The notes beneath the pieces are model-generated. The model was not told the DNA's origin. It did no database searches and worked only from the letters and a program-made list of their open reading frames with translations. This document shows positions 47,840 to 60,827 of a stretch of DNA of 64,000 nt, one piece after another. This stretch comes from Ruminococcus sp. (GTDB taxonomy: Bacteria > Bacillota > Clostridia > Oscillospirales > Ruminococcaceae). A program made the position numbers and the translations under genes. Where the stretch lies: contig JAEELF010000037.1 in the NCBI GenBank assembly GCA_016288815.1, positions 1 through 64,000 on the forward strand, in the 5' to 3' direction. How positions within the stretch are numbered: the first letter of the stretch is position 1; the number at the start of each line of letters is the position of its first letter.

Positions 47840-48304
47840 TTATTTTGAAAACTTATTATTCATCAAGGTTTTCATTTTCTTGGAATAATAAATTGCATCG
47901 TCTGAATCCTTTTTCGTGTATTTTAAAGCCTGTCCTGCGTAAAATGCGGCTTTATCGTATTCCTTTTGATTCTCATATATTATTACAAGTTTTTTGAAAG
48001 CAGGAATATGTATACCGCCTTTTATATCAGCTTTCATATCAGGAGAATTTAAACATGATAAGCAAATATTACAATACTTAATGCATTCATCCAGATATTT
48101 ACTGTCAAGATTTCTGAATTTATAGTAGAAATCTATCATAGGGGATGCAGAGAAATACTCAAAAGAATTTTGCCTTCCCTTATATTTTAAATATGCAGAG
48201 AGCAATTCTTTTTCTTTTTTGGTATCAAAGGCTTGTGGATTTTTCCCCTTTGTCATTTCGGTTGCGGTCGAATGACTCTTAAACAACCTTTCAAAAAAGC
48301 TCAT
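47840..48304 (-). CDS. Unknown helical protein next to the prophage repressor
   Basis: 154 residues, helix-rich, with a TPR-like hairpin (IPAFKKLVIIYENQKEYDKAAFYAGQALKYTKKD). AT-rich. It follows the repressor gene by 16 bases on the same strand, so it is expressed in the lysogen. It could be a superinfection-exclusion or other lysogenic-conversion protein; no family was recognised. Confidence 0.55.
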   Translation of the reverse strand: MSFFERLFKSHSTATEMTKGKNPQAFDTKKEKELLSAYLKYKGRQNSFEYFSASPMIDFYYKFRNLDSKYLDECIKYCNICLSCLNSPDMKADIKGGIHIPAFKKLVIIYENQKEYDKAAFYAGQALKYTKKDSDDAIYYSKKMKTLMNNKFSK

Positions 48305-48320
48305 ATCTTCCTCCTCCAGA

Positions 48321-49028
48321 TTAAATAAGATCAGCTATGCCTATCACGCACCCCTTGCACTCAATATTCCCATCATCGGGGAAAATATCATCGTACTCAG
48401 GATTACGAGATATAATGCAACCATCGCCAGCTTCCTTTATATAACCCTTACCATTCTGGACAAACAGTCCCACTTGACCTACTGGTACTTCCGAAGCAAG
48501 CGAAATATATACGATATCACCGTCATGATAGTCTGGCTCCATACTTTTACCTTCAACCTCTACGGCAAAATCAGCTTGCCGGGCTTCTGGAGTATCTACG
48601 ACTTCTATTGACCTCCATTGATCAGGATCGTTAAGGTCGAAACCTTCGCCGGCTGATACTTTGTTTTCGCTTAATCGTCGGAATGTAAATGAAAGTCGGT
48701 TCTGAACTGCTTCACAGCGTTTAACTTCGATATCAAGGATAGTATCAACAACATCCTTACCGTGTTCATCAAGAATACGGTATTTTTTTATATGTTGTTC
48801 TTCATCGAAACTGCCAAAAGAGCTGTCAGCTTCTTTTCCATATACTAAATAGTCAAGTGATACATTGAAAAAATCTGCTATTTCAATTAGATATTTTCGA
48901 TATGATTTGCTCTTACCAGATTTCCATTCAGAAAAAGCTGCGCTTTTTAATCCAAGATACTTAGTAAGCTCTTGTTGCTCTCGAGTGCCTAATAATAGAG
49001 TAATTCTGTCTAAAATATCCAATTTCAA
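48321..49028 (-). CDS. Prophage repressor: XRE helix-turn-helix plus S24 (LexA/CI-like) domain
   Basis: 235 residues: N-terminal HTH (about 8-65; REQQELTKYLGLKSAAFSEWKSGKSKSYRKYLIEI) and C-terminal S24 domain with the catalytic Ser in VEGKSMEPDYHDGDIVYI (near 161) and Lys in NGKGYIKEA (near 200). An Ala-Gly-type cleavage site is not obvious; ARQADF could serve. It keeps the prophage silent and would self-cleave on RecA activation. It is divergent from the early genes. Confidence 0.88.
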   Translation of the reverse strand: MKLDILDRITLLLGTREQQELTKYLGLKSAAFSEWKSGKSKSYRKYLIEIADFFNVSLDYLVYGKEADSSFGSFDEEQHIKKYRILDEHGKDVVDTILDIEVKRCEAVQNRLSFTFRRLSENKVSAGEGFDLNDPDQWRSIEVVDTPEARQADFAVEVEGKSMEPDYHDGDIVYISLASEVPVGQVGLFVQNGKGYIKEAGDGCIISRNPEYDDIFPDDGNIECKGCVIGIADLI

Positions 49029-49054
49029 TACATCTCCTTTGTTTATTACAACTA

Positions 49055-49119
49055 AATTAGAAAAAATCTAATTTGCGATCAGAAATCTTCTTGACATTTA
49101 GAAATTTTCCAGTTATAAT
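49055..49119. promoter_or_regulatory. Repressor/early switch: operator palindrome and consensus early promoter
   Basis: A palindrome AAATTAGA-A5-TCTAATTT (about 49054-49074) lies between the repressor start and TTGACA (49091-49096), 17-base spacer, TATAAT (49114-49119), which faces right to the early genes. A half-site-like TTTAGAAATTTT overlaps the spacer (49097-49108). A weaker leftward promoter for the repressor overlaps the palindrome. Confidence 0.7.
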
Positions 49120-49208
49120 ATTAATGATGAATATTTTAAGGCGCAGTAAGCCTTATGATAATTCTATCACAAGTAACTTGAAATGTAAATAGGAAAGGAA
49201 TGATTTTT

Positions 49209-49427
49209 ATGAAAGTAAAGGTCAAAAGAAGAAAGCCTGCTTCAGTTGCAGCGGAATTTACACCGTACAATGAATATTACGATCAGCATATAAGTACTAA
49301 AACTCGATGCTTAGAGTGTAATTACTATAAAGAATCTGCTAATGGTTACAGTATGTTTGTATTACTGCCCCTGCCTATCAGCATAATTGCTCTGCTTCTC
49401 AGTGCTTTAAGGTTCATTTTACAATAA
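49209..49427 (+). CDS. Small early prophage protein with a C-terminal membrane helix
   Basis: 72 residues if started at ATG 49209 (about 10 bases after AGGAAAGG); ATG 49200 adds three residues but sits too near that site. Basic N-terminus (KVKVKRRK), a CxxC pair (TRCLECNYYK) and a membrane helix (about 51-70). First gene from the early promoter. Function unknown. Confidence 0.5.
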   Translation: MKVKVKRRKPASVAAEFTPYNEYYDQHISTKTRCLECNYYKESANGYSMFVLLPLPISIIALLLSALRFILQ

Positions 49428-49764
49428 TACTGATAATAGAAACCGCTAAAGCTGCCAGAGACATTATGTTTGAGATGATCAAAGGTACTATATAACGCAT
49501 ATTGTTTTGATGTCTCTCTTCTAAATATGCAATTCCTTTAGGAGTAATTCTGTATACGTTTGTTTTGATTGGCATACTTCTTCCGCCTAAAGAATGTATG
49601 CATCCATTTGTTTTATTAAAAAGATAGCCTTCTTTATCAAGGTATCGCAGATTGTCCAAAGCGATTTCTCCATATCTCATTTTTAGTGTTTCAAAATTTG
49701 AATTGGGGTTCTTCTTTATATAACTCAGTAATTTAACTGATTTTTTATCTAACATACAATACAC
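49414..49764 (-). CDS. Winged-helix-like protein with C-terminal membrane segment
   Basis: 116 residues on the strand opposite to the early genes: LDKKSVKLLSYIKKNPNSNFETLKMRYG and NLRYLDKEGYLFNK look like a winged helix with NVYRITPKGIAYLEER as wing; a hydrophobic helix ends it (about 92-114). It overlaps the end of the preceding gene by 14 bases, tail to tail. Function unknown. Confidence 0.5.
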   Translation of the reverse strand: MYCMLDKKSVKLLSYIKKNPNSNFETLKMRYGEIALDNLRYLDKEGYLFNKTNGCIHSLGGRSMPIKTNVYRITPKGIAYLEERHQNNMRYIVPLIISNIMSLAALAVSIISIIVK

Positions 49765-49789
49765 CTCTTTTATAGAAAGGACTGATAAT

Positions 49790-50002
49790 ATGACCTTAGG
49801 AAATAAGATAAGAAACCGCCGTGAGGAGCTGGGGCTTACTCAGCCGGAGCTGGCGGAAAAGACAAAGCTCACTCAGGGGTACATCTCCAGAGTAGAAAAT
49901 GACAAGTTCATACCGAAAGCCAGCACCCTGCTCCTGCTTGCTTCCTCACTAAAACTCCCGGCGAAGGAGCTGCTGAGTGTTACTGAGAGGAGGGCGAGCT
50001 GA
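49790..50002 (+). CDS. Cro-like XRE-family DNA-binding protein
   Basis: 70 residues, one helix-turn-helix: IRNRREELGLTQPELAEKTKLTQGYISRVENDKFIPKASTL. AGAAAGGACTG site. It is placed early and rightward like Cro/Ner in temperate and Mu-like phages, and probably shuts off the repressor or tunes early transcription. GC is higher than in its immediate neighbours. The next gene starts at its last base. Confidence 0.85.
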   Translation: MTLGNKIRNRREELGLTQPELAEKTKLTQGYISRVENDKFIPKASTLLLLASSLKLPAKELLSVTERRAS

Positions 50003-50250
50003 TGGATGATAATTCAAAATACATTATCCCGGAAGTCGGCAGAGTCTATGAGAATAAGAACGGCTTCAAATATCGCTGTACGGGTCTCCGAATCAACGCC
50101 TGCGGCAACGCAGCGATAATGGAGAATCTGACAAGCGGCTGGACGTGCAGAGCCTATGGAATTAAGGAATATCCTGACGGGAAGATCGAATGGGCTTTTT
50201 CCGGCGGTGGCTTTTTTGCAGAAAGGAACGAACAATGCAGAATAGGATAG
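50002..50250 (+). CDS. Small prophage protein of unknown function
   Basis: 82 residues; ATG overlaps the previous stop (TGATG). Strand-rich, with a pattern of a small beta domain (GRVYENKNGFKYRCTGL, GNAAIMENLTSGWTCRAYGI) seen in many phage early proteins. No motif for a function. It overlaps the next gene's start. Confidence 0.6.
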   Translation: MDDNSKYIIPEVGRVYENKNGFKYRCTGLRINACGNAAIMENLTSGWTCRAYGIKEYPDGKIEWAFSGGGFFAERNEQCRIG

Positions 50251-50423
50251 TAGAAGCCTTCAACGAGACATACAACTGCAAATACAAGAGCTTTGCACAG
50301 ATCAGGAAAGAGTATCCTGTAACTGAGATACTCGATGTGTGGCTAAGATATGAAGGCATAGTCGGATACACAAGAGACATCATCGACCTGCTCGGTGAAT
50401 GTGAAGTATACATAGAAGAATAG
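50235..50423 (+). CDS. Small prophage protein of unknown function
   Basis: 62 residues from ATG 50235 (GAAAGGAACG site). Short helical protein with ITEILDVWLRYEGIVGYTRDIIDLL-like helix pattern; no family recognised. Its TAG stop overlaps the first base of the first hammerhead-like element. Confidence 0.55.
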   Translation: MQNRIVEAFNETYNCKYKSFAQIRKEYPVTEILDVWLRYEGIVGYTRDIIDLLGECEVYIEE

Positions 50424-50488
50424 CCGAAACAGCGGACGTGCTCCGCTGTCTGCCGGGGACGGTCTCCCGGCACTGACGATGGCAGACC
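50423..50488 (+). ncRNA. Hammerhead-like ribozyme element, copy A
   Basis: 66 bases in type II order. GCC (50423-50425), GAA plus A (50426-50429), stem III ACAGCGGA/TCCGCTGT (50429-50436 with 50442-50449), then C at 50450, giving the GTC cleavage triplet; predicted cut 50450/50451. Stem I TGCCGGG/CCCGGCA (50451-50457 with 50466-50472), core CTGACGA (50473-50479), T, then GGC pairing with the opening GCC as stem II. Loop I GGTCT (50461-50465) pairs with AGACC (50484-50488). Odd: stem II is short and a T is inserted before it. Confidence 0.7.
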
Positions 50489-50521
50489 AAGAAACTTGAA
50501 AACAGAAAAGAGGTGAGAAAT

Positions 50522-50866
50522 GTGAAAGCAACATATTTTGCGTTCTATCTCAACACGATCACAAAAGCAGTAAACGCATTGTGCGGTGCAGCAACCGGCG
50601 CGGATCTGTCTACAGGCACTATGCTCAAGGTAATATCCGAAATGAAAGGAATCGAACAGTCGACTGCTGATTTCATAACCGAGCTGGAGCTTGCCAAATC
50701 TGCAAAAGAAGCTGTAAGATCGTGCAAGCGCAGGTTTATCTATGCCAACAATTATGTGATCGTGCACTTACAAAAAATCCAGTCACAGGGCTATGACTTT
50801 AGCGAGTACATTGAAGCCCTGAAACTGGAATCAAAGACATTAAAAGAGGAGTTAAACTCTCTTTAA
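50522..50866 (+). CDS. Unknown early prophage protein
   Basis: 114 residues from GTG 50522 (AGAGGTGAG site); GTG 50513 is possible. All-helical; no motif recognised. It lies 34 bases after the first hammerhead-like element and before the transposase gene. Confidence 0.5.
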   Translation: MKATYFAFYLNTITKAVNALCGAATGADLSTGTMLKVISEMKGIEQSTADFITELELAKSAKEAVRSCKRRFIYANNYVIVHLQKIQSQGYDFSEYIEALKLESKTLKEELNSL

Positions 50867-50952
50867 TGCTCAGTTAAAGTGTATCACAGAAATCAGTATT
50901 TGTCAAGAAAATTTTTGCCGGGGCTTGCTGCTCCGGCGGAAAGGAGGTACAA

Positions 50953-52929
50953 GTGGACTACTTGACTGTGAAAGAAGTCGCTGAACTAAAAGGCTGTTCT
51001 GAGCGCTTTATTCGCAAACTTATAAGTAACGGGGATTTGAAATCCGAAGAGGTGGTTAATAGAGCAAACGGACACAAGAGTCATTCTATTCCCATATCGA
51101 CGCTCTCCGATGAATTACAGCAGCGATACTACAAGCGTCAGCGCTCAGATGCAGGACTGCTGCCGGAGGTAAAGGAAAAGAAGAAAAACGCTGCCAAAAA
51201 GCAGCGCTCATTCGAGGACCTTACTGCTGATGAGCGAACAGAGGTCAATGTCTGGACTGAAATTCTCAAGGAATGGCAGGGACTCAGAAACGGCTACAAC
51301 GGCAGCAAGGTCGAATTCGACAAGCTGTATGTTGGTAAATGCCAGATCGAGCACCCGGACATCAAGGTATCTAAGGATATCCTCTACCGGAAATGGAGCG
51401 CATACCGTGAAAACGATATGGAAGGTCTTATCGACAAACGTGGGGCTTGGAACAAGGGCACCAGCAAGATACCAGCTCCGGTGTGGGACTGCTTCCTGTG
51501 GTACTGGCTCGATGAAAATCAGCCAACAGCAAGCCTTTGCTATCGAAATACTATTGACTGGACTGCTGAATTCTATCCGGAGCTTGTCAGTCAGATACCG
51601 ACAGAACGGAGCTTTCGGCGTCAAATCGACCGTGATGTCGCATATGCCATTCAAGTATATATGCGCCAAGGCGACAAGGCATTCAACGACCGCTGCGCTC
51701 CGTATGCAATGAGAATGTATGAGAGCTTGGAGGCTAACGACTGCTGGATCGCTGATAACCATACATTTGATGTTATCTCTCTCGACGGCGAGACTAAGCA
51801 CAGGCTTTATCTGACAGCTTTCCTCGATGCCAAATCAGGTGTTATGACCGGCTGGAATATTACCGATGCGCCCTCTGCACAATCTACGATATTGGCGCTT
51901 CGACACGGTATTATTAGGTTTGGTATTCCAAAGTGCATTTACGTTGATAACGGACGCGAATTTCTTAATATCAGCTTCGGCGGCAGAGGTCACAGGTCAA
52001 GGAAGTCTATGGAAGATCAGCCTGAGCCGCCTGCAATACTTAAACGTCTCGGAATCGAAATGCGTAACGCTATCGTCCGGAACGCAAGAGCTAAGCCTAT
52101 CGAAAGAACCTTCCGCACCGTCAAGGAGCAATTCTCAAAGCTGTTCAGCGGCTTCTGCGGCGGAACGATACTCGAACGTCCGGAAAGTCTGAAATACCGG
52201 ATAAAGAACGGTGAAATACCACGCGACTATGAGATAAGAGACGTATTTGATTCGTGGATAGACGGTGAATTCAACTGCCAGAGCTACGGCGGCTCTGAAC
52301 GCTGCTATAAGGGAATGTCCCGAATAGATGTATGGAATCAGACCATAAGCGAGGCAAGGCAGGCTAATCCGGCTGATCTCAACCTTATGCTGATGTCTAC
52401 TACCAGAGCGCAGAAGATAAAGCGCGACGGCGTGTATATCACTATCGCAGGGGAAAAGCTCTGGTATATGGATACCGAGGAGACTGTTATGAACCTCCAG
52501 CGCGAGGTATTTGTAAGGTACGATCCTGCTGATCTGAGCAGCGTAAGGATATATGATGCTGCTACCGACAAGTTTATGTTTGAATGGAAGCTGGCAGACG
52601 AGCTTATGCTTGAATACCTCGAAGATGATGTTCAGAATGTTGCTGATGCTCAGGAGAAGATCAGAATGACAAAGAAATTTGTCAAGGAACAGGCTGCCGG
52701 TATAACTGCGAGTCTGACCAACGAACAGCGCATAACGCTTATTGAAATGACCGTAAACAAGGCTCAGAAAAATAAGGAAGAAAAATTCAAGATCCAGATG
52801 CCAAACAAGATAATCCCGGTTATGGCTAAGGAAGAGCCAATAGAAGAAAAAGTCGCAGTGGGTACGGATAGCTCAACGGTCTATGACTTGAAAAGAATAA
52901 TCCGCAATGCTGCTAAACGAAAGGAATGA
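50953..52929 (+). CDS. Mu-type DDE transposase (MuA-like)
   Basis: 658 residues, start GTG 50953 with an AAAGGAGG site. N-terminal MerR/HTH-like domain (DYLTVKEVAELKGCSERFIRKLISNGDL), a second DNA-binding region, then an RNase-H-fold catalytic core: Asp in NHTFDVI (near 270), Asp in IYVDNGREF (near 333) and Glu in KPIERTFRTVKEQF (near 383), followed by a Mu-transposase C-terminal beta-barrel and a Lys/Glu-rich tail. It would catalyse integration and replicative transposition of the prophage. The MuB-like gene follows at 4 bases. Confidence 0.93.
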   Translation: MDYLTVKEVAELKGCSERFIRKLISNGDLKSEEVVNRANGHKSHSIPISTLSDELQQRYYKRQRSDAGLLPEVKEKKKNAAKKQRSFEDLTADERTEVNVWTEILKEWQGLRNGYNGSKVEFDKLYVGKCQIEHPDIKVSKDILYRKWSAYRENDMEGLIDKRGAWNKGTSKIPAPVWDCFLWYWLDENQPTASLCYRNTIDWTAEFYPELVSQIPTERSFRRQIDRDVAYAIQVYMRQGDKAFNDRCAPYAMRMYESLEANDCWIADNHTFDVISLDGETKHRLYLTAFLDAKSGVMTGWNITDAPSAQSTILALRHGIIRFGIPKCIYVDNGREFLNISFGGRGHRSRKSMEDQPEPPAILKRLGIEMRNAIVRNARAKPIERTFRTVKEQFSKLFSGFCGGTILERPESLKYRIKNGEIPRDYEIRDVFDSWIDGEFNCQSYGGSERCYKGMSRIDVWNQTISEARQANPADLNLMLMSTTRAQKIKRDGVYITIAGEKLWYMDTEETVMNLQREVFVRYDPADLSSVRIYDAATDKFMFEWKLADELMLEYLEDDVQNVADAQEKIRMTKKFVKEQAAGITASLTNEQRITLIEMTVNKAQKNKEEKFKIQMPNKIIPVMAKEEPIEEKVAVGTDSSTVYDLKRIIRNAAKRKE

Positions 52930-52933
52930 TCAT

Positions 52934-53857
52934 ATGTATTCACAGGAACAGAATGAGCTGCTGGCTAAGGTGGAGCAGCTCCAGAGGGAGCGTAGCATAA
53001 GCCAGAACGAAGTCGGAAAGCTCATCGGCATTTCCGGCACAGCACTCTCTCAGATAAAAAACGGTAAGTATGCCGCTGATCCGCAGAAGGTCTTTGATAA
53101 GATAGCTGAATATTTTGGCGTTAAGGAAAAGGCACAGCTTACATATACAGAGCTGAAATATGTTTCTACAAGCATATCGGCTCAGATCTATGACATAATA
53201 GGCGCTTGTCAAGTCAAGGGCGGACTTGCAGTCGCAGCCGGAGATGCAGGTATAGGAAAGACAAAAGCGGCTCAGAAATACGTTGAGGATCACCCTGCAA
53301 ACAGCATTTTAATAACAGTTAATCCCTGTTTGACAAATATAAAAAGCCTGCTGAAGGTCATTGCAGACCGGATAAACGCTCCTCAGGAGAAATCCCGTGA
53401 TGAGCTCTGGTTATCGGTCGCACGGAAGCTTTCAGACGGACAGGTGCTCATTTTTGACGAAGCTCAACACCTTACGCTGAAGTGTATAGAGGTTCTGAGG
53501 AGTTTCTCAGACTACTTCAATGACAAAGGTCAGACACTCGGTATATGCTTCATCGGCAATCTTGATACAGTTGCCCGTATCGGCAGCAAGAAAGCTGAGT
53601 TCGCTCAGATAGCGAACCGCACAAAGCAGAAGCAGGTATATACTAAGGAGCAGATACGGCGTGAGGATATCATCAAGCTGTTCCCTTTGCTGGAAGTCGG
53701 TGATATGGACAAGGAAATTGATTTCCTGCATCGCATTGCCAGAACTCCGCAGGCTATCAGGGGAGTTATAAACTTGTTTTCCAACGCATACGACAACGAG
53801 GACTATTCCTTCAAGGGACTCGTGGCAGCAGCCAAGGGAATGAATATAGAGGTGTGA
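52934..53857 (+). CDS. Mu-type transposition ATPase (MuB-like)
   Basis: 307 residues from ATG 52934. N-terminal Cro/CI-type HTH (about 18-60: RSISQNEVGKLIGISGTALSQIKNGKY), then an AAA ATPase with Walker A AGDAGIGKTKA (near 105), Walker B LIFDEAQHL (near 175) and a sensor-like segment. MuB selects target DNA and activates the transposase. It is directly downstream of the transposase, as in Mu. Confidence 0.92.
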   Translation: MYSQEQNELLAKVEQLQRERSISQNEVGKLIGISGTALSQIKNGKYAADPQKVFDKIAEYFGVKEKAQLTYTELKYVSTSISAQIYDIIGACQVKGGLAVAAGDAGIGKTKAAQKYVEDHPANSILITVNPCLTNIKSLLKVIADRINAPQEKSRDELWLSVARKLSDGQVLIFDEAQHLTLKCIEVLRSFSDYFNDKGQTLGICFIGNLDTVARIGSKKAEFAQIANRTKQKQVYTKEQIRREDIIKLFPLLEVGDMDKEIDFLHRIARTPQAIRGVINLFSNAYDNEDYSFKGLVAAAKGMNIEV

Positions 53858-53858
53858 A

Positions 53859-54035
53859 ATGAAGCACGGAAAAGCCCCTAACAAATCCCAGAAGATATTC
53901 CTCCGCAGCATTAATCTTGATCCTGAGGAATGGCTCATAGTTAAGAATACAGATAAAGAAATGCTGCTGTTAAGCAGGCATACAGGACATACAAAGGTCA
54001 TACCGAAATGGAGGGATACAAATGACAGCGACTGA
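53859..54035 (+). CDS. DUF6906-like small prophage protein
   Basis: 58 residues starting at the ATG 53859. It opens KHGKAPNKSQKIFL and continues LDPEEWLIVKNTDKEMLLLSRHTGHTKVIP, the pattern of a short protein widespread in Firmicutes phages next to replication or recombination genes. Too short to be picked up by length-based calling. Function unknown. Its end overlaps the following gene by 14 bases. Confidence 0.7.
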   Translation: MKHGKAPNKSQKIFLRSINLDPEEWLIVKNTDKEMLLLSRHTGHTKVIPKWRDTNDSD

Positions 54036-54426
54036 TTGGGAAAAGGTCGAAAACAAGCTCAGTTATCCGTTTGGAGGAGTGAAACTTCGCATAGACGGTT
54101 ATGATGTTAATGTAATGGTAGAAAAGGAAAAACCGGGCTCGCTGAAATACGTTCTTGTAGTATATGTGGACGGATATATCAAGGGAGAATGGATCACAAA
54201 TGACTGCGAGATTAGCAGGAAGTTCTATTGCAAAAAAACTAAATCTCTGCTCACCAATTATGTCAGGAAATCATCAGCTTTTAAGCATATGAAAAAGAAA
54301 GAGCAGGAAGAGTGGATCAAGAAATATACATATGAGTATTATAGCCCGTATTTCACTTCATTCAAAAGGCTTAAGACTCACTTTACAAAAAACAATGATT
54401 CGATAGAACTTATAGATAACATTTAA
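54022..54426 (+). CDS. Unknown prophage protein
   Basis: 134 residues, mixed alpha/beta, Lys-rich C-terminal half with KKTKSLLTNYVRKSSAF. Start ATG 54022 within the end of the DUF6906 gene; a GGAGGG site is near. No family recognised. It resembles small proteins of other Firmicutes Mu-like phages in place only. Confidence 0.5.
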   Translation: MTATDWEKVENKLSYPFGGVKLRIDGYDVNVMVEKEKPGSLKYVLVVYVDGYIKGEWITNDCEISRKFYCKKTKSLLTNYVRKSSAFKHMKKKEQEEWIKKYTYEYYSPYFTSFKRLKTHFTKNNDSIELIDNI

Positions 54427-54441
54427 CTGGAGGAGAACAAA

Positions 54442-54750
54442 ATGAAAGAGTACATAAAAACGGTATGCTGCGGAGCAATAGTCGGTGCGTGCCTTATGCA
54501 GCTTACGAACATGGCAGTAGAAAGCCTAATAGATAAGCATTTTGCAGTCGGCGGCGAGATACTTCTTCCCCTGCTTCTGATCCTCGTTGGATATATAGGC
54601 TGGAAATTTGCAGAGTCGTATTTCAAAGAGATACGATACAAGGAGATCTACAATAAGGGTTACAAGGACGGAGCAAAGGTATATAGCTACAAGATAGTGC
54701 TTCCTATTGAGGAAGAACTGCTTGAGGCTAAGGATAGTAAAGCAAATTGA
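54442..54750 (+). CDS. Small prophage membrane protein
   Basis: 102 residues with two hydrophobic segments (about 5-24 and 36-56) and a charged cytoplasmic tail. TGGAGGAG site. Function unknown. Its stop codon lies 7 bases before the second hammerhead-like element. Confidence 0.55.
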   Translation: MKEYIKTVCCGAIVGACLMQLTNMAVESLIDKHFAVGGEILLPLLLILVGYIGWKFAESYFKEIRYKEIYNKGYKDGAKVYSYKIVLPIEEELLEAKDSKAN

Positions 54751-54757
54751 AATAACA

Positions 54758-54823
54758 GCCGAAACGGTGGACAGGCTCCACCGTCCGCCGGGATCGGTCT
54801 ACCGGCGCTGATGATGGCAGACC
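54758..54823 (+). ncRNA. Hammerhead-like ribozyme element, copy B
   Basis: Same 66-base layout. Stem III here is ACGGTGGA/TCCACCGT: compared with copy A two base pairs have changed on both strands (A-T to G-C, C-G to T-A). The outer pair of stem I changes from T-A to C-G. The core is CTGATGA (54808-54814). Cleavage triplet GTC, predicted cut 54785/54786. Loop I GGTCT (54796-54800) and AGACC (54819-54823) are unchanged. One G-A opposition occurs at the end of stem I. The covariation supports a real RNA fold. Confidence 0.75.
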
Positions 54824-54851
54824 AAAAATAATATTCAGGAGGAAACCAACA

Positions 54852-55133
54852 ATGACAAAGAACGAAGAAAGATTGGAAAAATGCAGGGATATCCTTAGAC
54901 ATTATGGCTTCGAGGCACAGCAGGATAAACTTGTGGAGGAGTGCGAGGAGCTCATCGAAGCAGCTCAGGGCGAGGATTACGACAGCTTCATCGATGAGCT
55001 CGCAGATGTCACTATAATGATAACTCAGATGTGCATTTCACTTGAACCGGAGCAGTACGGACAGCTTGAGGAAATGGTGGATTTCAAACTCGACAGGACT
55101 CTTGAGCGAATCAATGACGAAGTTGATACATAA
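54852..55133 (+). CDS. MazG-like nucleotide pyrophosphohydrolase
   Basis: 93 residues with the MazG metal-binding motifs: KLVEECEELIEAAQ (ExxEE) and FIDELADVTIMITQM (ExxD). Single-domain all-alpha NTP pyrophosphatases of this size are common in phages and may remove non-canonical nucleotides or (p)ppGpp. GGAGG site. It lies between copies B and C of the ribozyme-like element. Confidence 0.85.
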   Translation: MTKNEERLEKCRDILRHYGFEAQQDKLVEECEELIEAAQGEDYDSFIDELADVTIMITQMCISLEPEQYGQLEEMVDFKLDRTLERINDEVDT

Positions 55134-55134
55134 C

Positions 55135-55200
55135 GCCGAAACAGCGGACACGCTCCGCTGTCTGCCGGGGACGGTCTCCCGGTACTGATGATGGCAGACC
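55135..55200 (+). ncRNA. Hammerhead-like ribozyme element, copy C
   Basis: Same 66-base layout, beginning one base after the TAA of the MazG-like gene. Stem III equals copy A except for the loop (CACGC). The second pair of stem I is G-T here instead of G-C. Core CTGATGA (55185-55191); cleavage triplet GTC, predicted cut 55162/55163; GGTCT and AGACC conserved. The AbrB-like gene begins 36 bases downstream. Confidence 0.72.
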
Positions 55201-55235
55201 AAAGAATATTGATAATCAAATAGGAGGTAATGTCT

Positions 55236-55472
55236 ATGACATCAAAAAAGCTTACAAGCTCCGCAGGGATTACGATCCCGAAGGATCTGCGCCTGCGTCT
55301 CGGCTGGAAGCCGGGAATGTCGGTGGATATCGAGCCGACATCTGACGGAGCGGTAATTATCAGAGCACACGCTCCGCAGTGCCGCTTCTGCGGAGACTAT
55401 ACGAATATCCACAAGTACAAGGATATCACAGTTTGCGCTAAGTGTGCAAATGAAATGAAGGAGGCTATCTGA
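55236..55472 (+). CDS. AbrB/SpoVT-type protein with zinc ribbon
   Basis: 78 residues from ATG 55236 (TAGGAGG site). N-terminal swapped-hairpin DNA-binding domain (KLTSSAGITIPKDLRLRLGWKPGMSVDIEPTSDGAVII) and a C-terminal CxxC...CxxC zinc ribbon (CRFCGDYTNIHKYKDITVCAKC). Probably a phage transcription regulator or an antitoxin-like protein; no toxin gene follows. It ends one base before the next ATG. Confidence 0.85.
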   Translation: MTSKKLTSSAGITIPKDLRLRLGWKPGMSVDIEPTSDGAVIIRAHAPQCRFCGDYTNIHKYKDITVCAKCANEMKEAI

Positions 55473-55473
55473 T

Positions 55474-56142
55474 ATGGAGAATATGAACGCTGTCATTGAC
55501 AGAATGGCAGAGATAAGCAGCGCTAAAAAGCTTCTTAATGAGGAATACGACAGGCTTCAGGCAATGCTGCTCTTGGAAGCTGAAAAGGAACTTACTGATA
55601 CAAAGCTTAAATCCGTAAGCTGGACAAGCAGCGATAACAACACTGCATCGGTAACGATATCGGATACTGTTTCAGTTGTCGCCGGAGAGCTTCTCCAAAG
55701 CATATTCGGAGCTGTTTATCCGAGCATGGTAGAGCAGAAGACAACATACACACTCAAAGCTCCTGCAAAGCGTATTCTTTCTGCTATCTGGCATGGAGAA
55801 TACTGTGAGGGCAGTGTAGCAGAAATTATCAGCAACCTCAGCTGCGACGATAAATCAAAGCGTGTACTGCTGAAAAAAATCAAGGGCATCAGCTTTGATA
55901 AAGACAAGAATAATCTCATGACACTCGCGGGTCTTTCTGAAACTGAGGCGTCAGATATGGCGTACCTGATAAATGAAGCCGCTGCATGGGAGAACATCTG
56001 TACATTCATCAAGGTAAACAATAACGGGCAGATAAATGATAATATCCTCAAGGATATTATCACAAAGGTAAACGCTGCTGTCAATGTTTCCAGAGGAATG
56101 AAGACTGAGATCACTGCTGCCGGGGGTGACGAAGATGAATGA
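55474..56142 (+). CDS. Unknown early prophage protein, possibly nuclease-inhibitor-like
   Basis: 222 residues. Start ATG 55474 with GGAGG in the preceding gene end. N-terminal coiled-coil (VIDRMAEISSAKKLLNEEYDRLQAML), central mixed region, C-terminal helices. The position between transposition genes and GemA is where Mu carries Gam, but the sequence does not show clear Gam motifs. Function unknown. Confidence 0.5.
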   Translation: MENMNAVIDRMAEISSAKKLLNEEYDRLQAMLLLEAEKELTDTKLKSVSWTSSDNNTASVTISDTVSVVAGELLQSIFGAVYPSMVEQKTTYTLKAPAKRILSAIWHGEYCEGSVAEIISNLSCDDKSKRVLLKKIKGISFDKDKNNLMTLAGLSETEASDMAYLINEAAAWENICTFIKVNNNGQINDNILKDIITKVNAAVNVSRGMKTEITAAGGDEDE

Positions 56143-56410
56143 CCAAATGATAATGCAGTTTGTTACCGCCATAACGGATTGCTTTAAAGACGAGGATAAT
56201 CGCGAGCTGTATAGTTTTTCCCAGATCAAGTCTGAAGACGGAAATGAAATTGTTCTGTCAATGTTTTATGCTCTTCAGTTCGTTGTAAATCAGCTTGGAA
56301 ATACGCACTATGATCCGCTTGAGCTCATCAGTGTACTGACACGTCTTCTATTTCTTCAAGAAGTTAATACCAATAAAAATGGAGGTGCTGACGATGAAAA
56401 CAGTAATTGA
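56135..56410 (+). CDS. Small acidic prophage protein of unknown function
   Basis: 91 residues from ATG 56135; GTG 56126 would add three. Helical. It overlaps the end of the previous gene by 8 bases and the next small gene by 17. No family recognised. Confidence 0.5.
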   Translation: MNDQMIMQFVTAITDCFKDEDNRELYSFSQIKSEDGNEIVLSMFYALQFVVNQLGNTHYDPLELISVLTRLLFLQEVNTNKNGGADDENSN

Positions 56411-56552
56411 TTACTTCTTAATTGTCGTTGCACCATGCGTGGGGTGCAAAGGTGATAACCCCAGCGGAGAACCGTGCGATGTCTGCACACATCAGACATT
56501 AGTAGCGATGACTGACATATCTGTTGATTTGATACTGCGAGGTGAATTCTAA
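56394..56552 (+). CDS. Small putative zinc-binding prophage protein
   Basis: 52 residues from ATG 56394 (GGAGGTG site). Four cysteines in a CVGCK...PCDVC arrangement suggest a treble-clef-like zinc site. Its stop TAA overlaps the next start (TAATG), a coupling seen repeatedly in this operon. Too short for length-based detection. Confidence 0.55.
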   Translation: MKTVIDYFLIVVAPCVGCKGDNPSGEPCDVCTHQTLVAMTDISVDLILRGEF

Positions 56553-56839
56553 TGTGGATCGATGGCGAATGGTACACTGAATCCGATGTAAAGGCACATA
56601 TCCACGAACTAAAAACGGCTCTCAGAGAGCGCACAGAATCAGCTGATAATGGCGCACGTCAGATAGCACACTATGAGAACGAGAACCGCGATTTAAAAAG
56701 AATCATTGATCTTGCAAAGGCGGAGATCCCTCGCCCGTACCCAGAATATAAATATCGTTTTGAGGCGGAAGCTGAGAAGGTGCTTGCAGCTGAGAGAACA
56801 GTCTTTCATAAAGAAACGGACGGTGAGCTCAATGCTTGA
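56552..56839 (+). CDS. Unknown coiled-coil prophage protein
   Basis: 95 residues: a short N-terminal strand (WIDGEWYTESDV) and a long coiled-coil (about 12-60), then a Pro-rich turn (EIPRPYPEYKY). TAATG overlap with the previous gene. Function unknown. Confidence 0.5.
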   Translation: MWIDGEWYTESDVKAHIHELKTALRERTESADNGARQIAHYENENRDLKRIIDLAKAEIPRPYPEYKYRFEAEAEKVLAAERTVFHKETDGELNA

Positions 56840-56963
56840 ACAGGAAAAAGTGATAATGCTGCTTCCGCCGGTGAGCGTTGGGATCGTATCTATCCTGTCC
56901 TATGTGAAGCCGACTATCAGGTACATATCTGATAGGCTGTCAAAGGAGAACAAAAAACGATGA
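56832..56963 (+). CDS. Tiny prophage protein
   Basis: 43 residues from ATG 56832, overlapping the gene before (8 bases) and after (4 bases, ATGA). A hydrophobic stretch (VIMLLPPVSVGIVSIL) followed by a basic end suggests membrane contact. The tight overlaps support translation; function unknown. Confidence 0.45.
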   Translation: MLEQEKVIMLLPPVSVGIVSILSYVKPTIRYISDRLSKENKKR

Positions 56964-57262
56964 ATAAGCCCACTAAAACCAATAACGAACTATTCAATAG
57001 ATTTTGGAAAGCGTATCCGCGAAAAGAGGGAAAGCCAAAGGCGTTAAAGACCTTTGAGAAATATGTGCAGTCAGAGGACACGCTGCTACTGCTTCTCAAG
57101 GAGCTTGAGCGTCAGTCAAAGCTAAAGGACTGGAAGCACATCAACATGAAGTACATTCCGCTTGCACAAACATGGCTTAACCGGCGCGATTGGGAGGAGG
57201 ATCAGAGTGGAGCACTTGAAATTCGAGATACCGAAGATCAATACGGAGCTGCCGTATACTGA
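56960..57262 (+). CDS. Phage replication-associated protein, DnaD/helix-type N-terminus
   Basis: 100 residues. The beginning NELFNRFWKAYPRKEGKPKALKTFEKYV is the motif found in many phage replication-initiation and helicase-loader accessory proteins. It overlaps the DnaC-like gene by 56 bases in another frame. Probably acts with it at replication start. Unusual for a Mu-like phage. Confidence 0.6.
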   Translation: MNKPTKTNNELFNRFWKAYPRKEGKPKALKTFEKYVQSEDTLLLLLKELERQSKLKDWKHINMKYIPLAQTWLNRRDWEEDQSGALEIRDTEDQYGAAVY

Positions 57263-57977
57263 ATTCCTTCGGCTGAAAGCTGAGAGTTATAACAATAGTC
57301 CCGGAGATCTTAAAGGCTATGACTGCCCGTTATGCAAAAACAAAGGATACATTGAAAAAATAGTAGATGGAAATGAGGTGCTTGCGGAATGCAAGTGCCT
57401 CAAATATCGTGACACACTCAGGAGGATAAAGGAAAGTGGACTTGAAGAGCTCCTAAGGAGCTGCACGTTCAGGAGTTATGAGTGTACAGAAGAGTGGCAA
57501 ACAGCATTGAAGGCAGCGGCGCACAGCTTTTCAGAGCGTGACAATGGCTGCTTCTACATAGGAGGTCAGAGCGGCTGCGGAAAAACGCATTTATGCACTG
57601 CTATTGTTGGTGCTATGATAAAAAAAGGCAGATCCGCACGGTATTTCATCTGGCGCGAGGATTCCACTACACTCAAAGCTCTTGTGAATGATCCTGAATA
57701 CAAAACGGTTATTGATGGCTTTAAGCGTACAGATGTACTGTACATTGACGATCTTTTCAAGCAGAACACTGTAAGTGACGCTGATATCAAACTGGCATTT
57801 GAGCTTATTGATTATCGCGGCAGAAATAGATTGATGACTATCATATCTTCTGAGCTTACTTTTGATCAGCTGATCGACATCGATGAAGGACTTGCCGGAC
57901 GGATAATACAGCTAACACGGGGAAATCAACACATTATCCCAAAGGATCGAAAGAAAAATTATAGATTAAGGAAGTGA
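57207..57977 (+). CDS. DnaC-like helicase loader (AAA ATPase)
   Basis: 256 residues from GTG 57207 (GGGAGGAGG site). A zinc-finger-like N-terminus (CPLCKNKGYI...ECKCLKY) is typical of DnaC/DnaI proteins. The AAA core has Walker A FYIGGQSGCGKTHL (near 120), Walker B VLYIDDLF and a sensor Arg near the end (EGLAGRIIQ). It would bring the host DnaB helicase to phage DNA after transposition. Mu itself relies on host PriA, so this is an addition. Confidence 0.88.
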   Translation: MEHLKFEIPKINTELPYTEFLRLKAESYNNSPGDLKGYDCPLCKNKGYIEKIVDGNEVLAECKCLKYRDTLRRIKESGLEELLRSCTFRSYECTEEWQTALKAAAHSFSERDNGCFYIGGQSGCGKTHLCTAIVGAMIKKGRSARYFIWREDSTTLKALVNDPEYKTVIDGFKRTDVLYIDDLFKQNTVSDADIKLAFELIDYRGRNRLMTIISSELTFDQLIDIDEGLAGRIIQLTRGNQHIIPKDRKKNYRLRK

Positions 57978-57981
57978 TATA

Positions 57982-58464
57982 ATGGCAACAATGACAGGTA
58001 GACTATACGCTCTGGCATCAGGACTTGGAATGGTCGAGCGAGGAAATAAGGAAGACGCATTTCATCAGCTCGTGTATGGCATTACCGGAAAGGAGCACGT
58101 CAGTGAGCTGACGACATCCGAAGCCAACGCAGTGCAGCATGAGCTTCAGGAACGCATGAAAATGAAGAATCATGATAGGCCATTGAAAAAGCGCAGTAAA
58201 AAAGAAGTTCAGGGAATGATGACCTATCCTCAGCAAAAACTTGCATGGAGGTACATCTACCGCCTTGCAGAACTCGAACCAACTGAAGCAGGCGTATGTG
58301 ACAGACTCATCGGTGCAATACAAAAGATACTCGGTATAACCGTATCTAGAACAGATCCATTTAAGTGGATCAACTTTGATGACGGCACAAGACTTATAGA
58401 GCAGCTCAAGAGATATGTCCGCAGCGCCGAACGCAAGGCTGCTGCAAAAGGAGGCGGAGGGTAA
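57982..58464 (+). CDS. Mu gp16/GemA-like regulatory protein
   Basis: 160 residues with the DUF1018 pattern: LYALASGLGM..., a helical middle with basic run (RPLKKRSKKEVQGMMTYPQQKLAWRYI) and a C-terminal winged-helix-like FKWINFDDGTRLIEQLKRYV. In Mu the GemA protein alters host transcription and DNA supercoiling. Directly before Mor, as in Mu. Confidence 0.75.
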   Translation: MATMTGRLYALASGLGMVERGNKEDAFHQLVYGITGKEHVSELTTSEANAVQHELQERMKMKNHDRPLKKRSKKEVQGMMTYPQQKLAWRYIYRLAELEPTEAGVCDRLIGAIQKILGITVSRTDPFKWINFDDGTRLIEQLKRYVRSAERKAAAKGGGG

Positions 58465-58781
58465 TGGATATTAATAAGCTCATCAGTTTAGATCAACTTC
58501 GTGACGATCAGCGTGAGCTTGCTGAGGTCATCGGCTTGGAAGCATACAAGAAGCTTATAAACTATTATGGCGGCAGCCTTCTTTACGTCCAGAAGGTGGA
58601 TTCGGTACTCAAAGATACACGAGATAAAGAGCTGAATGAAAAATTCGACGGTGCTAACTATAAGGAGCTTGCCCGTGAGTACGGAATTTCGGAAATGACG
58701 ATACGCGATATCGTTGCCCCTAAACGGAAAGAGCTTCGTACCGCTCCGCTGGAAGGACAGATGAGTTTTGATAATAGTTGA
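58464..58781 (+). CDS. Mor-family transcription activator
   Basis: 105 residues of the Mor/C family of Mu: IGLEAYKKLINYYGGSLLYVQKVDSVLKD (dimerisation part with the conserved YGGS-LY-P-like turn) and FDGANYKELAREYGISEMTIRDIV (helix-turn-helix). It activates middle/late promoters, presumably the genes that follow. Overlaps GemA by 1 base (GTAATGG). Confidence 0.92.
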   Translation: MDINKLISLDQLRDDQRELAEVIGLEAYKKLINYYGGSLLYVQKVDSVLKDTRDKELNEKFDGANYKELAREYGISEMTIRDIVAPKRKELRTAPLEGQMSFDNS

Positions 58782-58825
58782 GATAGTGAATTCCTTTATA
58801 ATCCTTATATTTATTGTTTATTATT

Positions 58826-58876
58826 AAAAGTAGTATAATTCAGTTAAAACAAACTGATTGTACTACTTTTCTTTTT
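58826..58876 (+). terminator. Hairpin terminator after mor, overlapping a promoter box
   Basis: AAAAGTAGTA / TACTACTTTT (58826-58835 with 58861-58870) enclosing TCAGTT...AACTGA, followed by TTTTC TTTTT. TATAAT (58834-58839) without a good -35 lies in the left arm, a typical picture for an activator-dependent (Mor) promoter. So the end of early transcription and the start of the middle operon coincide here. Confidence 0.65.
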
Positions 58877-58890
58877 ATGGCGGTGAGAGC

Positions 58891-59202
58891 ATGGCGAGTG
58901 AGTTGATCTATTTCATTATAACGTCGGGAATAACGATAGCTATTGGTATCATCAGCTATTTTCTCAAGCGAACAATGGAGAAGATCGACAAGCTCGAGCG
59001 TGAGGTGCGTGAAAGTCGTGAAGCTCAGTATCAGTTGTCTGAGAAATACGCGACCAAAGCCGAAGTTGCAGAGATAAAAGCAACTATGCAGAAGCTGACC
59101 GACAATATTGACTATATCAAGGAGCATACCACAAAAAACGAGGATTTTATCCGGGTAATGACCCGGCTTGAAAGTAAGATAGATAGCTATTACAGCAGAT
59201 AG
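58891..59202 (+). CDS. Membrane-anchored coiled-coil prophage protein (holin-region type)
   Basis: 103 residues from ATG 58891 (GCGGTGAGAG site). N-terminal membrane helix (LIYFIITSGITIAIGIISYFL) and a long coiled-coil. Similar short proteins are found at the head of the structural block of Mu-like phages (Mu gp24/25-like lysis accessory region). Function inferred only. Confidence 0.55.
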   Translation: MASELIYFIITSGITIAIGIISYFLKRTMEKIDKLEREVRESREAQYQLSEKYATKAEVAEIKATMQKLTDNIDYIKEHTTKNEDFIRVMTRLESKIDSYYSR

Positions 59203-59214
59203 GAGTGAAAGGCA

Positions 59215-59544
59215 TTGGAAACAAAAGAAATGCAGGCGCGTATCCGTCAGAAGAAGTTCTTCAGGAATAACGGAGTCGTGCTCAAAGGTATTAACCTGCT
59301 CCGCGAGAAATATGTGCAGCTCTCTGAGCTAAAATATGCTCTCGAACCCTCAATGAGTGAACAGGAGCTGAGGGACAGTATAAACTACCTTTCCGAGTCA
59401 GGATACATCAATATGAGAAATATTCGCAGTAAGCAGAGCACAACGCTTGCCGACTGCGATTTCAACGATATTGAGGCAAAGGTCTCGGCGGACGGTATTA
59501 AGATCATCGCCTGTGTAAAGGTAGATGAATGCATAGAGGTTTAG
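59215..59544 (+). CDS. Winged-helix-like phage protein (Mu gp26-like position)
   Basis: 109 residues from TTG 59215 (TAGGAGTG site). A winged-helix pattern (VVLKGINLLREKYVQLSELKYAL, SEQELRDSINYLSESGYINMR). In Mu-like phages a gene of this size stands just before gp27. Function unknown. Confidence 0.6.
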   Translation: METKEMQARIRQKKFFRNNGVVLKGINLLREKYVQLSELKYALEPSMSEQELRDSINYLSESGYINMRNIRSKQSTTLADCDFNDIEAKVSADGIKIIACVKVDECIEV

Positions 59545-59545
59545 T

Positions 59546-60085
59546 ATGGGGAACAGAAAGCACTCTAAAATAGATCAGCTCGATCCCACAGTAAAAGAGA
59601 CCGTTGACGAAATGATAAAGACAGGAGCTCTATACCGTGAGATCGTTGACTATATTAAGCAAAACGGTATGAGCGTTTCAATAGCAGCTGTCGGTCGCTA
59701 TGCCAAGAACCTGATGAGCACGCTGGACGCTCTGAGAATGAGCCAGCAGAATTTTCGTGCTATAATGGAGGAGACTGAAAAGTATCCGGATCTTGATATT
59801 ACCGAAGGTATACTTAGACTCCTCAGCGGACAGATGCTCGATGCTGTCAGCAGAATGAATGAGGACCAGCTGAAAGAACTGGACTTTGATACGCTCTCCA
59901 AACACGCCATAGCTTTAACAAGAGCAGCAGCATATAAGCGCAAGGTCGACATTAAGAACAAGGATATACTTGAAAATGGTGCGGAGCAGTTCCAATCGCT
60001 TATTTTTGAGGCAATGGCTGCGGAACGTCCTGATCTGTACAAGGAAGTAAAGAAATTCCTCAAGGAAAAAACAAAGGCTGGGTGA
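59546..60085 (+). CDS. DUF3486 protein, Mu gp27-like (terminase small subunit)
   Basis: 179 residues with the DUF3486 layout: SKIDQLDPTVKETVDEMIKTG, YREIVDYIKQNGMSVSIAAVGRYAKNL, and a C-terminal helical region. In Mu-like phages it precedes the terminase large subunit and is thought to be the small subunit. Starts one base after the previous stop codon. Confidence 0.85.
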   Translation: MGNRKHSKIDQLDPTVKETVDEMIKTGALYREIVDYIKQNGMSVSIAAVGRYAKNLMSTLDALRMSQQNFRAIMEETEKYPDLDITEGILRLLSGQMLDAVSRMNEDQLKELDFDTLSKHAIALTRAAAYKRKVDIKNKDILENGAEQFQSLIFEAMAAERPDLYKEVKKFLKEKTKAG

Positions 60086-60089
60086 TGAA

Positions 60090-60575: not shown

Positions 60576-60818
60576 AAAACAGTGCGTAAACATCTTCACG
60601 GTTGATTCGTCCCGGCTGATGAGCGCATGAGTATGGGTTTAGAACAGATTTTTAAGTTACAAAAATCTGAATGGCGGAGCACGCCCAAAAATCATCATTT
60701 AAAATGCGTTTAATTTCGTTTCTGCGCGTTTAAATAACTTCGCTTGTAAAATTACACCTGAAAGAATACAACGTCAAAAAAGGGCAAATAAAGCCCTTAT
60801 TTTTATACCCGAAATGAG
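60576..60818 (+). promoter_or_regulatory. Late-gene leader between the NusG paralogue and the packaging genes
   Basis: About 240 bases without a gene. In order: TTCGTCCCGGCTGATGAGCGC (structured, near 60602-60630), hairpin AGATTTTTAAGTTACAAAAATCT (60646-60668), motifs TTTAAAATGCGTTTAATTTCG and GCGTTTAAATAAC (60697-60740) that look like those at the prophage left end, and a terminator AAGGGC/GCCCTT with ATTTTTA (60780-60805). It is a fitting target for the NusG paralogue. Confidence 0.6.
60780..60805 (+). terminator. Terminator in front of the packaging genes
   Basis: AAGGGC, AAATAAA loop, GCCCTT, then ATTTTTA. It lies directly before the RBS of the next gene, so it attenuates and does not end an operon. 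Confidence 0.65.
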
Positions 60819-60827
60819 GTGGCAGTA

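What the first reader, a model, noticed from the sequence alone, without database searches (positions are those of the whole stretch)
50423..55200. Three copies of a 66-nt hammerhead-like element with covariation and a pseudoknot in a Mu-like prophage early operon
Seen: three elements of exactly 66 bases (50423, 54758, 55135). Each has, in order, GCC-GAAA, an 8-bp stem, GTC, a 6-7-bp stem with loop GGTCT, CTGANGA, T, GGC, AGACC. This is the order of a type II hammerhead ribozyme. Stem III differs between copies A/C and B by two compensatory base-pair changes; the outer pair of stem I by a third. GGTCT and AGACC are complementary and invariant. Known: type II hammerheads occur in bacterial and phage DNA. 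Unusual: three copies in one operon, the extra T before stem II, stem II of only 3 bp, and the loop I-3' strand pseudoknot.
Basis: partly seen in the sequence, partly recalled or inferred. Interest (0 to 1): 0.93.

Follow-up and report, generated by a model that had tools for sequence, protein, structure and literature searches.

The report
Three hammerhead ribozymes in a prophage
Three short RNA elements between genes of a dormant virus in a gut bacterium are almost certainly self-cutting hammerhead ribozymes of a known kind, and comparison with related viruses suggests they cut one long message into separate pieces, a job that a different ribozyme seems to do at the same gene in some relatives.

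Summary
Observation and identification are right, but the kind is known. All three 66-nt elements (50423-50488, 54758-54823, 55135-55200) match Rfam Hammerhead_II (RF02276) above its cut-off (60.9, 48.9, 59.7 bits; cut-off 37) and fold into the three-way junction. In 74 distinct relatives stems and loop I-tail pseudoknot covary. The features called unusual are not: 3-bp stem II in 74/74, extra base before stem II in 51/74, pseudoknot pairs 2-5 formed in 71/74, clusters of up to 11 copies. Perreault et al. 2011 already describe type II hammerheads, this pseudoknot, and clusters flanking prophage genes.

What comparison adds: the elements occupy recurring slots (after a 62-aa gene, before an AbrB-like gene). 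In some related Mu-like phages the AbrB slot holds a twister-P1-like ribozyme instead, once between AbrB proteins 86% identical. Both classes share the layout stop codon, hairpin, cleavage site, start. This supports selection for cleavage between cistrons. Activity was not tested.

Side finding: RAGATH-28 RNA at 60596 follows a LoaP-like NusG paralog gene; 26 of 27 RAGATH-28 matches examined do, most with a UNCG hairpin.

The parts
50423..50488 (+). Hammerhead type II copy A (stem II, GAA, stem III, C17, stem I with loop GGTCT, CTGACGA, T, stem II, AGACC); predicted cleavage 50450/50451
   Evidence: RF02276 60.9 bits, E 3.8e-10; descriptor; fold; model R2
54758..54823 (+). Hammerhead type II copy B; predicted cleavage 54785/54786
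   Evidence: RF02276 48.9 bits, E 5.2e-7; descriptor; fold
55135..55200 (+). Hammerhead type II copy C; predicted cleavage 55162/55163
   Evidence: RF02276 59.7 bits, E 7.9e-10; descriptor; fold
50235..50423 (+). Small gene (62 aa, called g50190) whose TAG stop (50421-50423) shares its G with stem II of copy A
   Evidence: an element 0-2 nt after the stop in 7 of 12 other distinct homologues
50522..50866 (+). Gene of unknown function downstream of copy A
   Evidence: no family
50953..52929 (+). MuA-like transposase
   Evidence: phrog_310 E 2.3e-108, PF09299, PF09039
52937..53857 (+). MuB-like transposition ATPase
   Evidence: phrog_296 E 7.4e-50, PF13401
54022..54426 (+). Conserved phage gene phrog_5671
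   Evidence: E 9.4e-32
54442..54750 (+). Small gene that ends 7 nt before copy B
54852..55133 (+). MazG-like gene, alone between copies B and C; predicted 377-nt fragment 54786-55162 after double cleavage
   Evidence: PF03819, phrog_2245; arithmetic on cleavage sites
55236..55472 (+). AbrB/MazE-like gene; its 5' gap is the slot that holds a hammerhead or a twister-like ribozyme in relatives
   Evidence: PF04014, TIGR01439

Best explanation
The three elements are type II hammerhead ribozymes that act in cis on the early transcript of a Mu-like prophage. Each cuts after C17, between its stem III hairpin and its stem I hairpin, and so splits the polycistronic mRNA between cistrons: a roughly 4.3-kb piece with MuA/MuB (50451-54785), a 377-nt piece with only the MazG-like gene (54786-55162), and a downstream piece that starts before the AbrB-like gene. 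The upstream piece ends in a GC-rich hairpin with a 2',3'-cyclic phosphate; the downstream piece starts with a hairpin and a 5'-OH. The purpose is most likely to give neighbouring early cistrons separate lifetimes. Shown: sequence, structure, covariation, recurring positions, presence of a second ribozyme class at one of these positions in relatives. Inferred from the family: cleavage itself. Inferred only: stabilised ends and separate mRNA lifetimes.
For: Rfam match above cut-off in all three. Core kept while stems covary: covariation score 0.558 against at most 0.126 for slid structures, 36 sequences; 74 sequences. Pseudoknot pairs exchange U-A/C-G (39/35) and G-C/A-U/C-G (58/10/5). Recurring slots: 8 of 13 distinct g50190 homologues, the window's included, are followed by an HHR 0-2 nt after the stop; the HHR lies 26-32 nt before the AbrB-like gene in the window and ten other loci. 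Second class at the same slot: of 30 distinct AbrB homologues 10 have an HHR and 8 a twister-P1-like ribozyme within 60 nt; L036 (twister) and L091 (HHR) AbrB are 86% identical. Layout: 86 of 130 HHRs in 80 viral loci chosen only by ribozyme pattern start -1 to +10 nt from an upstream ORF stop, against 8 of 130 antisense and 117 of 2600 random positions; 24 of 34 twister 5' hairpins start -3 to +12 nt from a stop, against 47 of 680 random. 32 of 34 twisters have a 5' hairpin of 6 bp or more, against 9 of 34 control segments. Perreault et al. 2011 saw self-cleavage of tandem hammerheads in native polycistronic fragments in vitro, and of one set in E. coli (which types were in those sets was not checked).
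Against: No activity or expression data for these copies. Phage genomes are compact, so closeness to a stop codon is partly expected for anything between genes. Four of 79 Rfam places have altered cores and L047 seems to carry an altered base at 16.1, so not every copy need be active. 5 of 13 g50190 homologues have no HHR directly after them, and most loci searched there were fetched because they hold an HHR; of 9 viral loci picked by this gene only L123 (same contig as L032) and L124 have it directly after, the other 7 being weak or partial matches. Of the 22 loci picked by MuA (window, L032-L052) 9 show no ribozyme; 7 of these are cut short, but L043 and L045 have enough flank and no Rfam match either. 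Bacillus phage BalMu-1 shows none in its first 10 kb. So the device is not essential to Mu-like phages. The AbrB tree is poorly resolved (16 of 27 inner branches open); firmly supported branches force only 1 change for the hammerhead and 2 for the twister, and the twister label is no more clustered than shuffled labels (299 of 500 as low), so how often the classes were exchanged is open. Recalled, not looked up: the 5'-OH product of the glmS ribozyme is degraded by RNase J1 in Bacillus subtilis, which would argue for down-regulation of the downstream gene rather than stabilisation.
Confidence: 0.75

Rival explanations
1. The ribozymes cleave, but the purpose is to switch off the downstream gene: the 5'-OH fragment is degraded, so each copy lowers expression of what follows (MuA module, MazG, AbrB), perhaps relieved when a ribosome at the upstream stop codon covers the 5' strands of stems II and III.
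For: In the window copy A's stem II overlaps the upstream stop codon, and 86 of 130 relatives start within -1 to +10 nt of a stop, so a terminating ribosome would cover the GAA core. The glmS/RNase J1 precedent is recalled, not looked up.
Against: It does not explain why twisters of this group carry a hairpin just 5' of the cleavage site, nor the closed stem I hairpin at the 5' end of the downstream fragment.
Confidence: 0.2
2. The elements are passengers: small ribozyme cassettes that copy themselves between gaps of phage genomes without benefit to the phage.
For: Copies in one phage are alike (median identity 83% over 44 pairs, against 73% over 891 other pairs), copy number per fetched stretch varies from 1 to 11, and flanking genes vary.
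Against: Same-slot copies in different phages are nearly as alike (medians 77% over 55 and 83% over 45 pairs), cores are kept while stems change by paired mutation, and an unrelated ribozyme class stands in for the HHR at the AbrB slot.
Confidence: 0.08
3. The three are degenerate or inactive relics.
For: Some relatives have core changes; Perreault et al. found 4 of 18 tested consensus hammerheads inactive in vitro.
Against: All three window copies have an intact core, an intact pseudoknot and paired stem changes.
Confidence: 0.04
4. The hairpins next to the cleavage sites only insulate the ribozyme from upstream coding sequence so that it folds reliably; end protection is not selected.
For: Twister has an optional stem P0 (PMC5408937, passages read), which may be this hairpin; insulation would give the same sequence pattern.
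Against: None decisive; it predicts the same sequences.
Confidence: 0.25

Closest known systems
Rfam RF02276 Hammerhead_II; Perreault et al. 2011 (PMC3088659)
   Same: Core, permutation, short stem II, loop I-tail pseudoknot, clustering between prophage genes
   Different: Nothing of substance. An extra base between A9 and stem II, which Rfam's consensus lacks but 51 of 74 relatives have
Type-P1 twister ribozyme (RF03160)
   Same: In relatives, twister-like elements sit in the same slot before the AbrB-like gene and share the layout stop - hairpin - cleavage - start
   Different: A different ribozyme class; these phage copies score 35.2-61.1 bits, below Rfam's cut-off of 67.2, though E-values run from 1e-4 to 4e-13; none found in the window
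Bacillus phage BalMu-1 (KP063903)
   Same: MuA 35% identical over its length, MuA followed by MuB
   Different: No hammerhead or twister found in its first 10 kb

Membership tests
Hammerhead ribozyme, type II (RF02276) | Conserved core: C11.1-G12-A13-A14, A15.1-U16.1, C17, CUGANGA | tested here: met
   All three copies
Hammerhead ribozyme, type II (RF02276) | Stems I and III closed by loops, stem II open (type II order) | tested here: met
Hammerhead ribozyme, type II (RF02276) | Covariance model score at or above the gathering score | tested here: met
   60.9, 48.9, 59.7 bits against 37
Hammerhead ribozyme, type II (RF02276) | Stems and pseudoknot supported by covariation in relatives | tested here: met
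   the pseudoknot does not vary among the three window copies
Hammerhead ribozyme, type II (RF02276) | Self-cleavage after C17 | not testable with these tools
   Needs in vitro transcription or RNA-end mapping
Twister-P1 (RF03160), for the elements at the AbrB slot in relatives | Score at or above the gathering score 67.2 | tested here: not met
   36.9-54.6 bits in six viral loci, at most 61.1 elsewhere; so they are called twister-like, not filed as members
Twister-P1 (RF03160), for the elements at the AbrB slot in relatives | Conserved core UAAYGC..GGU..CAAGYCC..GCAGAG and stems P1, P2, P4 | tested here: met
   Alignments to the model (with some non-standard pairs in the outer stem and one in P4 of L135); alignment A3
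LoaP antiterminator (NF033641), for the NusG-like gene 60090-60575 | NCBIfam score at or above 125 | tested here: not met
   90.4 bits, E 1.4e-25; the best of the six NusG-type models matched
RAGATH-28 (RF03052), 60596-60680 | Score at or above the gathering score 45.3 | tested here: met
   45.4 bits, barely

The most novel reading that the evidence does not exclude
Mu-like phages of Firmicutes keep fixed cut-here slots between early cistrons, and what is inherited is the cut rather than the ribozyme. Hammerhead II and twister-P1 replace one another at the same slot and converge on one layout: the upstream stop codon, at once a GC hairpin, the cleavage site, then the next ribosome-binding site. 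The cut acts as a 3'-end-forming punctuation mark without a terminator, and type II is favoured because it alone leaves a hairpin on both new ends.
Probability: 0.4. Interest if true: 0.65.

Novelty: new member of a known kind. Interest (0 to 1): 0.4.

Why it matters
Why bacterial self-cleaving ribozymes sit near genes of Mu-like phages is stated to be still unknown (PMC10085705, passages read). A slot before one gene family that is filled by either of two unrelated ribozyme classes gives a clean genetic test: swap one class for the other, or kill the core, in one phage operon, and ask which mRNA property changes. The three copies themselves are ordinary members of a known family.

Tried and rejected
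Rejected: that the extra T, 3-bp stem II, pseudoknot or copy number set these apart. Rejected: a twister in the window (best 6.8 bits in 48000-64000 with filters off; none in the whole window at E 0.01 with default filters). Rejected as uninformative: an open same-strand frame across the ribozymes (82 of 130), because the test asked for no start codon. Not carried further: that closeness to a stop codon is itself selected, since compact genomes give part of it. The weak fourth descriptor hit at 56295 was dropped as chance level.

Counts and what was left out. Of 79 Rfam places given to the parser, 4 failed (core variants in L087, L092, L063, L064) and 1 was a duplicate (L035 = L015), leaving 74. 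One of the 74, L047, is mis-registered because its GTC reads GCC. Of 36 AbrB homologues 30 entered the tree: dropped were L132 and L101 (same contigs as L032 and L035), L139 and L152 (1 and 13 nt upstream), L134 and L148 (identical proteins). Loci L086-L105 were fetched because they hold an HHR, so HHR counts that include them are biased; among the 21 viral loci chosen by AbrB alone with room upstream, counted by hand, 3 have an HHR and 6 a twister directly before the gene, 6 a twister 194-217 nt before it, and 6 neither within 250 nt. One search prints 14 of 16 MuA loci with a ribozyme; for loci chosen by MuA alone I count 8 of 10 by hand (window, L032, L033, L035, L036, L037, L039, L042 with; L043, L045 without). 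The hairpin test used 34 twisters: two truncated model hits (L137, L138 1-28) and L146 (no UAAY found) were left out, and L173 7786 is mis-registered by the search pattern. In one search the script counted 12 new twisters; 4 are mis-parses (L292 1477, L299 1477, L301 1476, L295 plus strand), leaving 8, all with a hairpin of 6 bp or more within 5 nt of UAA; several of these are near-copies of each other, and L286 gave no parse.
Full report
What is there. The window holds three 66-nt elements on the + strand at 50423-50488, 54758-54823 and 55135-55200. Rfam's Hammerhead_II model matches all three above its gathering score: 60.9, 48.9 and 59.7 bits against 37. A descriptor of my own finds the same three plus one weak hit at the level of shuffled sequence. 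Their minimum-energy folds are the three-way junction with stem II (3 bp), stem III (8 bp) and stem I. A search of the whole own genome (69 contigs; 150 of 543 first-look candidates scored) gave these three only.

Relatives. RF02276 matches 22 of 125 genomes of the genus, 19 of 394 sampled from the order (16 over the cut-off) and 6 of 398 sampled from the phylum, the own genome counted each time, and none of 14 control genomes. I parsed 79 Rfam-supported places into 74 distinct elements; 4 with core changes failed and 1 was a duplicate. Two of the 4 read CCGATGA, the U4C change that Perreault et al. discuss as weak in vitro but tolerated in a viroid. Stem II is 3 bp in 74 of 74. An extra base precedes its 3' strand in 51 of 74: in 28 of 43 from window and genus, 23 of 25 from the order and 0 of 6 from the phylum sample.

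Structure support. On 36 aligned sequences 95.1% of the cells form standard pairs, against 74.9% for shuffles and at most 45.8% when the partner is slid; the covariation score is 0.558 against at most 0.126 slid. Stem II's middle pair changes C-G to U-A in 10 of 74, and the pseudoknot pairs change U-A/C-G 39/35 and G-C/A-U/C-G 58/10/5; pairs 2-5 of the pseudoknot all form in 71 of 74, its first pair in only 34. The pseudoknot is invariant among the three window copies, so its support comes from the relatives.

Setting. The elements lie in the early region of a Mu-like prophage: MuA and MuB, GemA, Mor and Gp27 further on. Related MuA genes come mostly from Ruminococcus assemblies; the best match in a named phage, Bacillus phage BalMu-1, is 35% identical. 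Copy A shares the G of the TAG stop of a 62-aa gene; copies B and C start 7 nt and 1 nt after stops and flank only the MazG-like gene. Of 13 distinct homologues of the 62-aa gene, the window's included, 8 are followed by the element 0-2 nt after the stop and 5 are not; in L089 and L090 the pair stands behind MuB instead of before MuA. Of 9 viral loci picked by this gene, L123 (same contig as L032) and L124 have the element directly after it; the other 7 are weak or partial matches without it. The AbrB-like gene is preceded by the element at 26-32 nt in the window and ten other loci.

Two ribozyme classes, one slot. Upstream of more distant AbrB homologues I noticed a twister-like sequence. Rfam at gathering threshold found hammerheads but no twister in 20 of these loci; by E-value it gave twister-P1 at 9e-10 to 1e-4 in six viral loci, all below the curated score. 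A model of 23 such sequences (R1) then found copies that were not in its training set, among them twisters 27-194 nt behind MuB in L039, L040, L041 and L042, Ruminococcus loci without a hammerhead; Rfam's own model also finds twisters in 13 of 125 genomes of the genus, all below its cut-off. In 30 distinct AbrB homologues the element within 60 nt is a hammerhead in 10 and a twister in 8; 6 more have a twister 194-217 nt before the gene, 6 have neither within 250 nt. The closest swap is L036 (twister) against L091 (hammerhead), AbrB 86% identical. On the AbrB tree the hammerhead label needs 4 changes (shuffled mean 8.6), the twister label 7 (shuffled mean 7.2), and firmly supported branches force only 1 and 2, so the number of exchanges is open. 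L033, L036, L086, L100, L104 and L105 carry both classes, as do L303 and L304, which were chosen by MuA alone. PMC10085705 (passages read) already states that hammerheads and twisters are both enriched near certain genes, most strongly genes of Mu-like phages, and that the reason is unknown. I did not find exchange at one orthologous slot described in the listings; the original twister and RAGATH papers (2014, 2015; recalled) were not read.

How general. Of 22 loci picked by MuA (window, L032-L052) 13 hold a ribozyme of either class and 9 do not; of the 10 with at least 600 nt before MuA and 1500 nt after MuB, 8 do (counted by hand). BalMu-1's first 10 kb has none.

Common layout. In 80 viral loci picked only by ribozyme pattern, 86 of 130 hammerheads begin -1 to +10 nt from the stop of an upstream frame, against 8 of 130 antisense and 117 of 2600 random places. 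In the 74 parsed elements a start codon with a ribosome-binding site was found after 70, median 29 nt beyond the pseudoknot strand. 32 of 34 distinct twisters have a perfect stem of 6 bp or more in the 38 nt 5' of UAA, against 9 of 34 control segments; mean energy is -13.0 against -7.0 shuffled and -4.7 control kcal/mol, and in 31 the 3' arm ends 2-7 nt before UAA. Eleven further twisters agree: 8 after 4 mis-parses are set aside, and 3. The hairpin starts -3 to +12 nt from a stop in 24 of 34, against 47 of 680 random places. This hairpin may be the optional twister stem P0, so its existence is not new; that it is near universal here and abuts a stop codon is what I add. The twister cuts at a U-A step, so both classes would leave the upstream mRNA with a GC hairpin at or near its end. 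That type II is the only hammerhead permutation with closed hairpins on both sides of the cut follows from its definition.

Mechanism. Most likely the early transcript is cut between cistrons as it is made, which gives pieces with separate lifetimes. Identity as a hammerhead is close to certain; cleavage is very likely by family (Perreault et al. report cleavage of three native tandem arrays in vitro and of one in E. coli); separate lifetimes and end protection are inference. The strongest rivals are degradation of the 5'-OH downstream piece and hairpins that merely insulate the fold. Passenger spread has some support, since copies in one phage resemble each other (median 83%), but it does not explain the second class at the same slot.

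Side finding. The RAGATH-28 match (60596-60680, 45.4 bits against 45.3) starts 20 nt after the stop of a NusG-like gene (60090-60575) whose best NCBIfam model is LoaP (90.4 bits, cut-off 125). Of 27 RAGATH-28 matches from the genus and order searches (the window's own included; some below the cut-off), 26 have a NusG homologue upstream on the same strand and 1 (L283) has none; 22 show GGUUGA-NNCG-NN(N)CC after its stop, at 9-39 nt in 21 of them and 122 nt in one, and two more read GGUCGA. The motif can form a hairpin with a UNCG loop, and LoaP of Bacillus velezensis needs a UNCG hairpin in a target leader (PMC12691694, passages read). RAGATH-28-positive genomes also hold a type II hammerhead in 9 of 10 (order sample) and 13 of 16 (genus). 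No paper in the library contains the term RAGATH-28. A reasonable guess is that RAGATH-28 recruits the phage's own NusG paralog for antitermination of the late operon; no binding or transcription evidence exists here.

Noticed in passing
window 60596-60680 and 60090-60575: RAGATH-28 RNA starts 20 nt after a LoaP-like NusG paralog gene and precedes the terminase region; 26 of 27 RAGATH-28 matches from the genus and order have a NusG homologue upstream, most with a conserved UNCG hairpin like the LoaP target. It may be a phage antitermination signal.
   Followed up: partly
L039 5981, L040 6153, L041 6006, L042 13102: Twister-P1-like ribozymes 27-194 nt behind MuB in Ruminococcus Mu-like loci that lack hammerheads; twister matches of this group score below Rfam's cut-off for RF03160, which may be set too high for them.
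   Followed up: yes
L157 and L194 (viral contigs): 11 and 10 type II hammerheads by descriptor within one fetched stretch of 8.5 and 14.6 kb.
   Followed up: no
L030 and L096, after the g50190 homologue: No hammerhead follows the small gene directly here; another possible hairpin stands there (AGGCT..AGCCT). Could be another element.
   Followed up: no
L063, L064, L087, L092, L047: Hammerheads with changed core bases (CCGATGA twice, GAA to AAA, altered CTGANGA, GTC to GCC) at otherwise normal elements.
   Followed up: no
RF02276 model, stem II: Rfam's consensus structure seems to pair stem II one base out of register: it leaves unpaired the C before GAA, which can pair with G in all 74 elements parsed here (alignment).
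   Followed up: no
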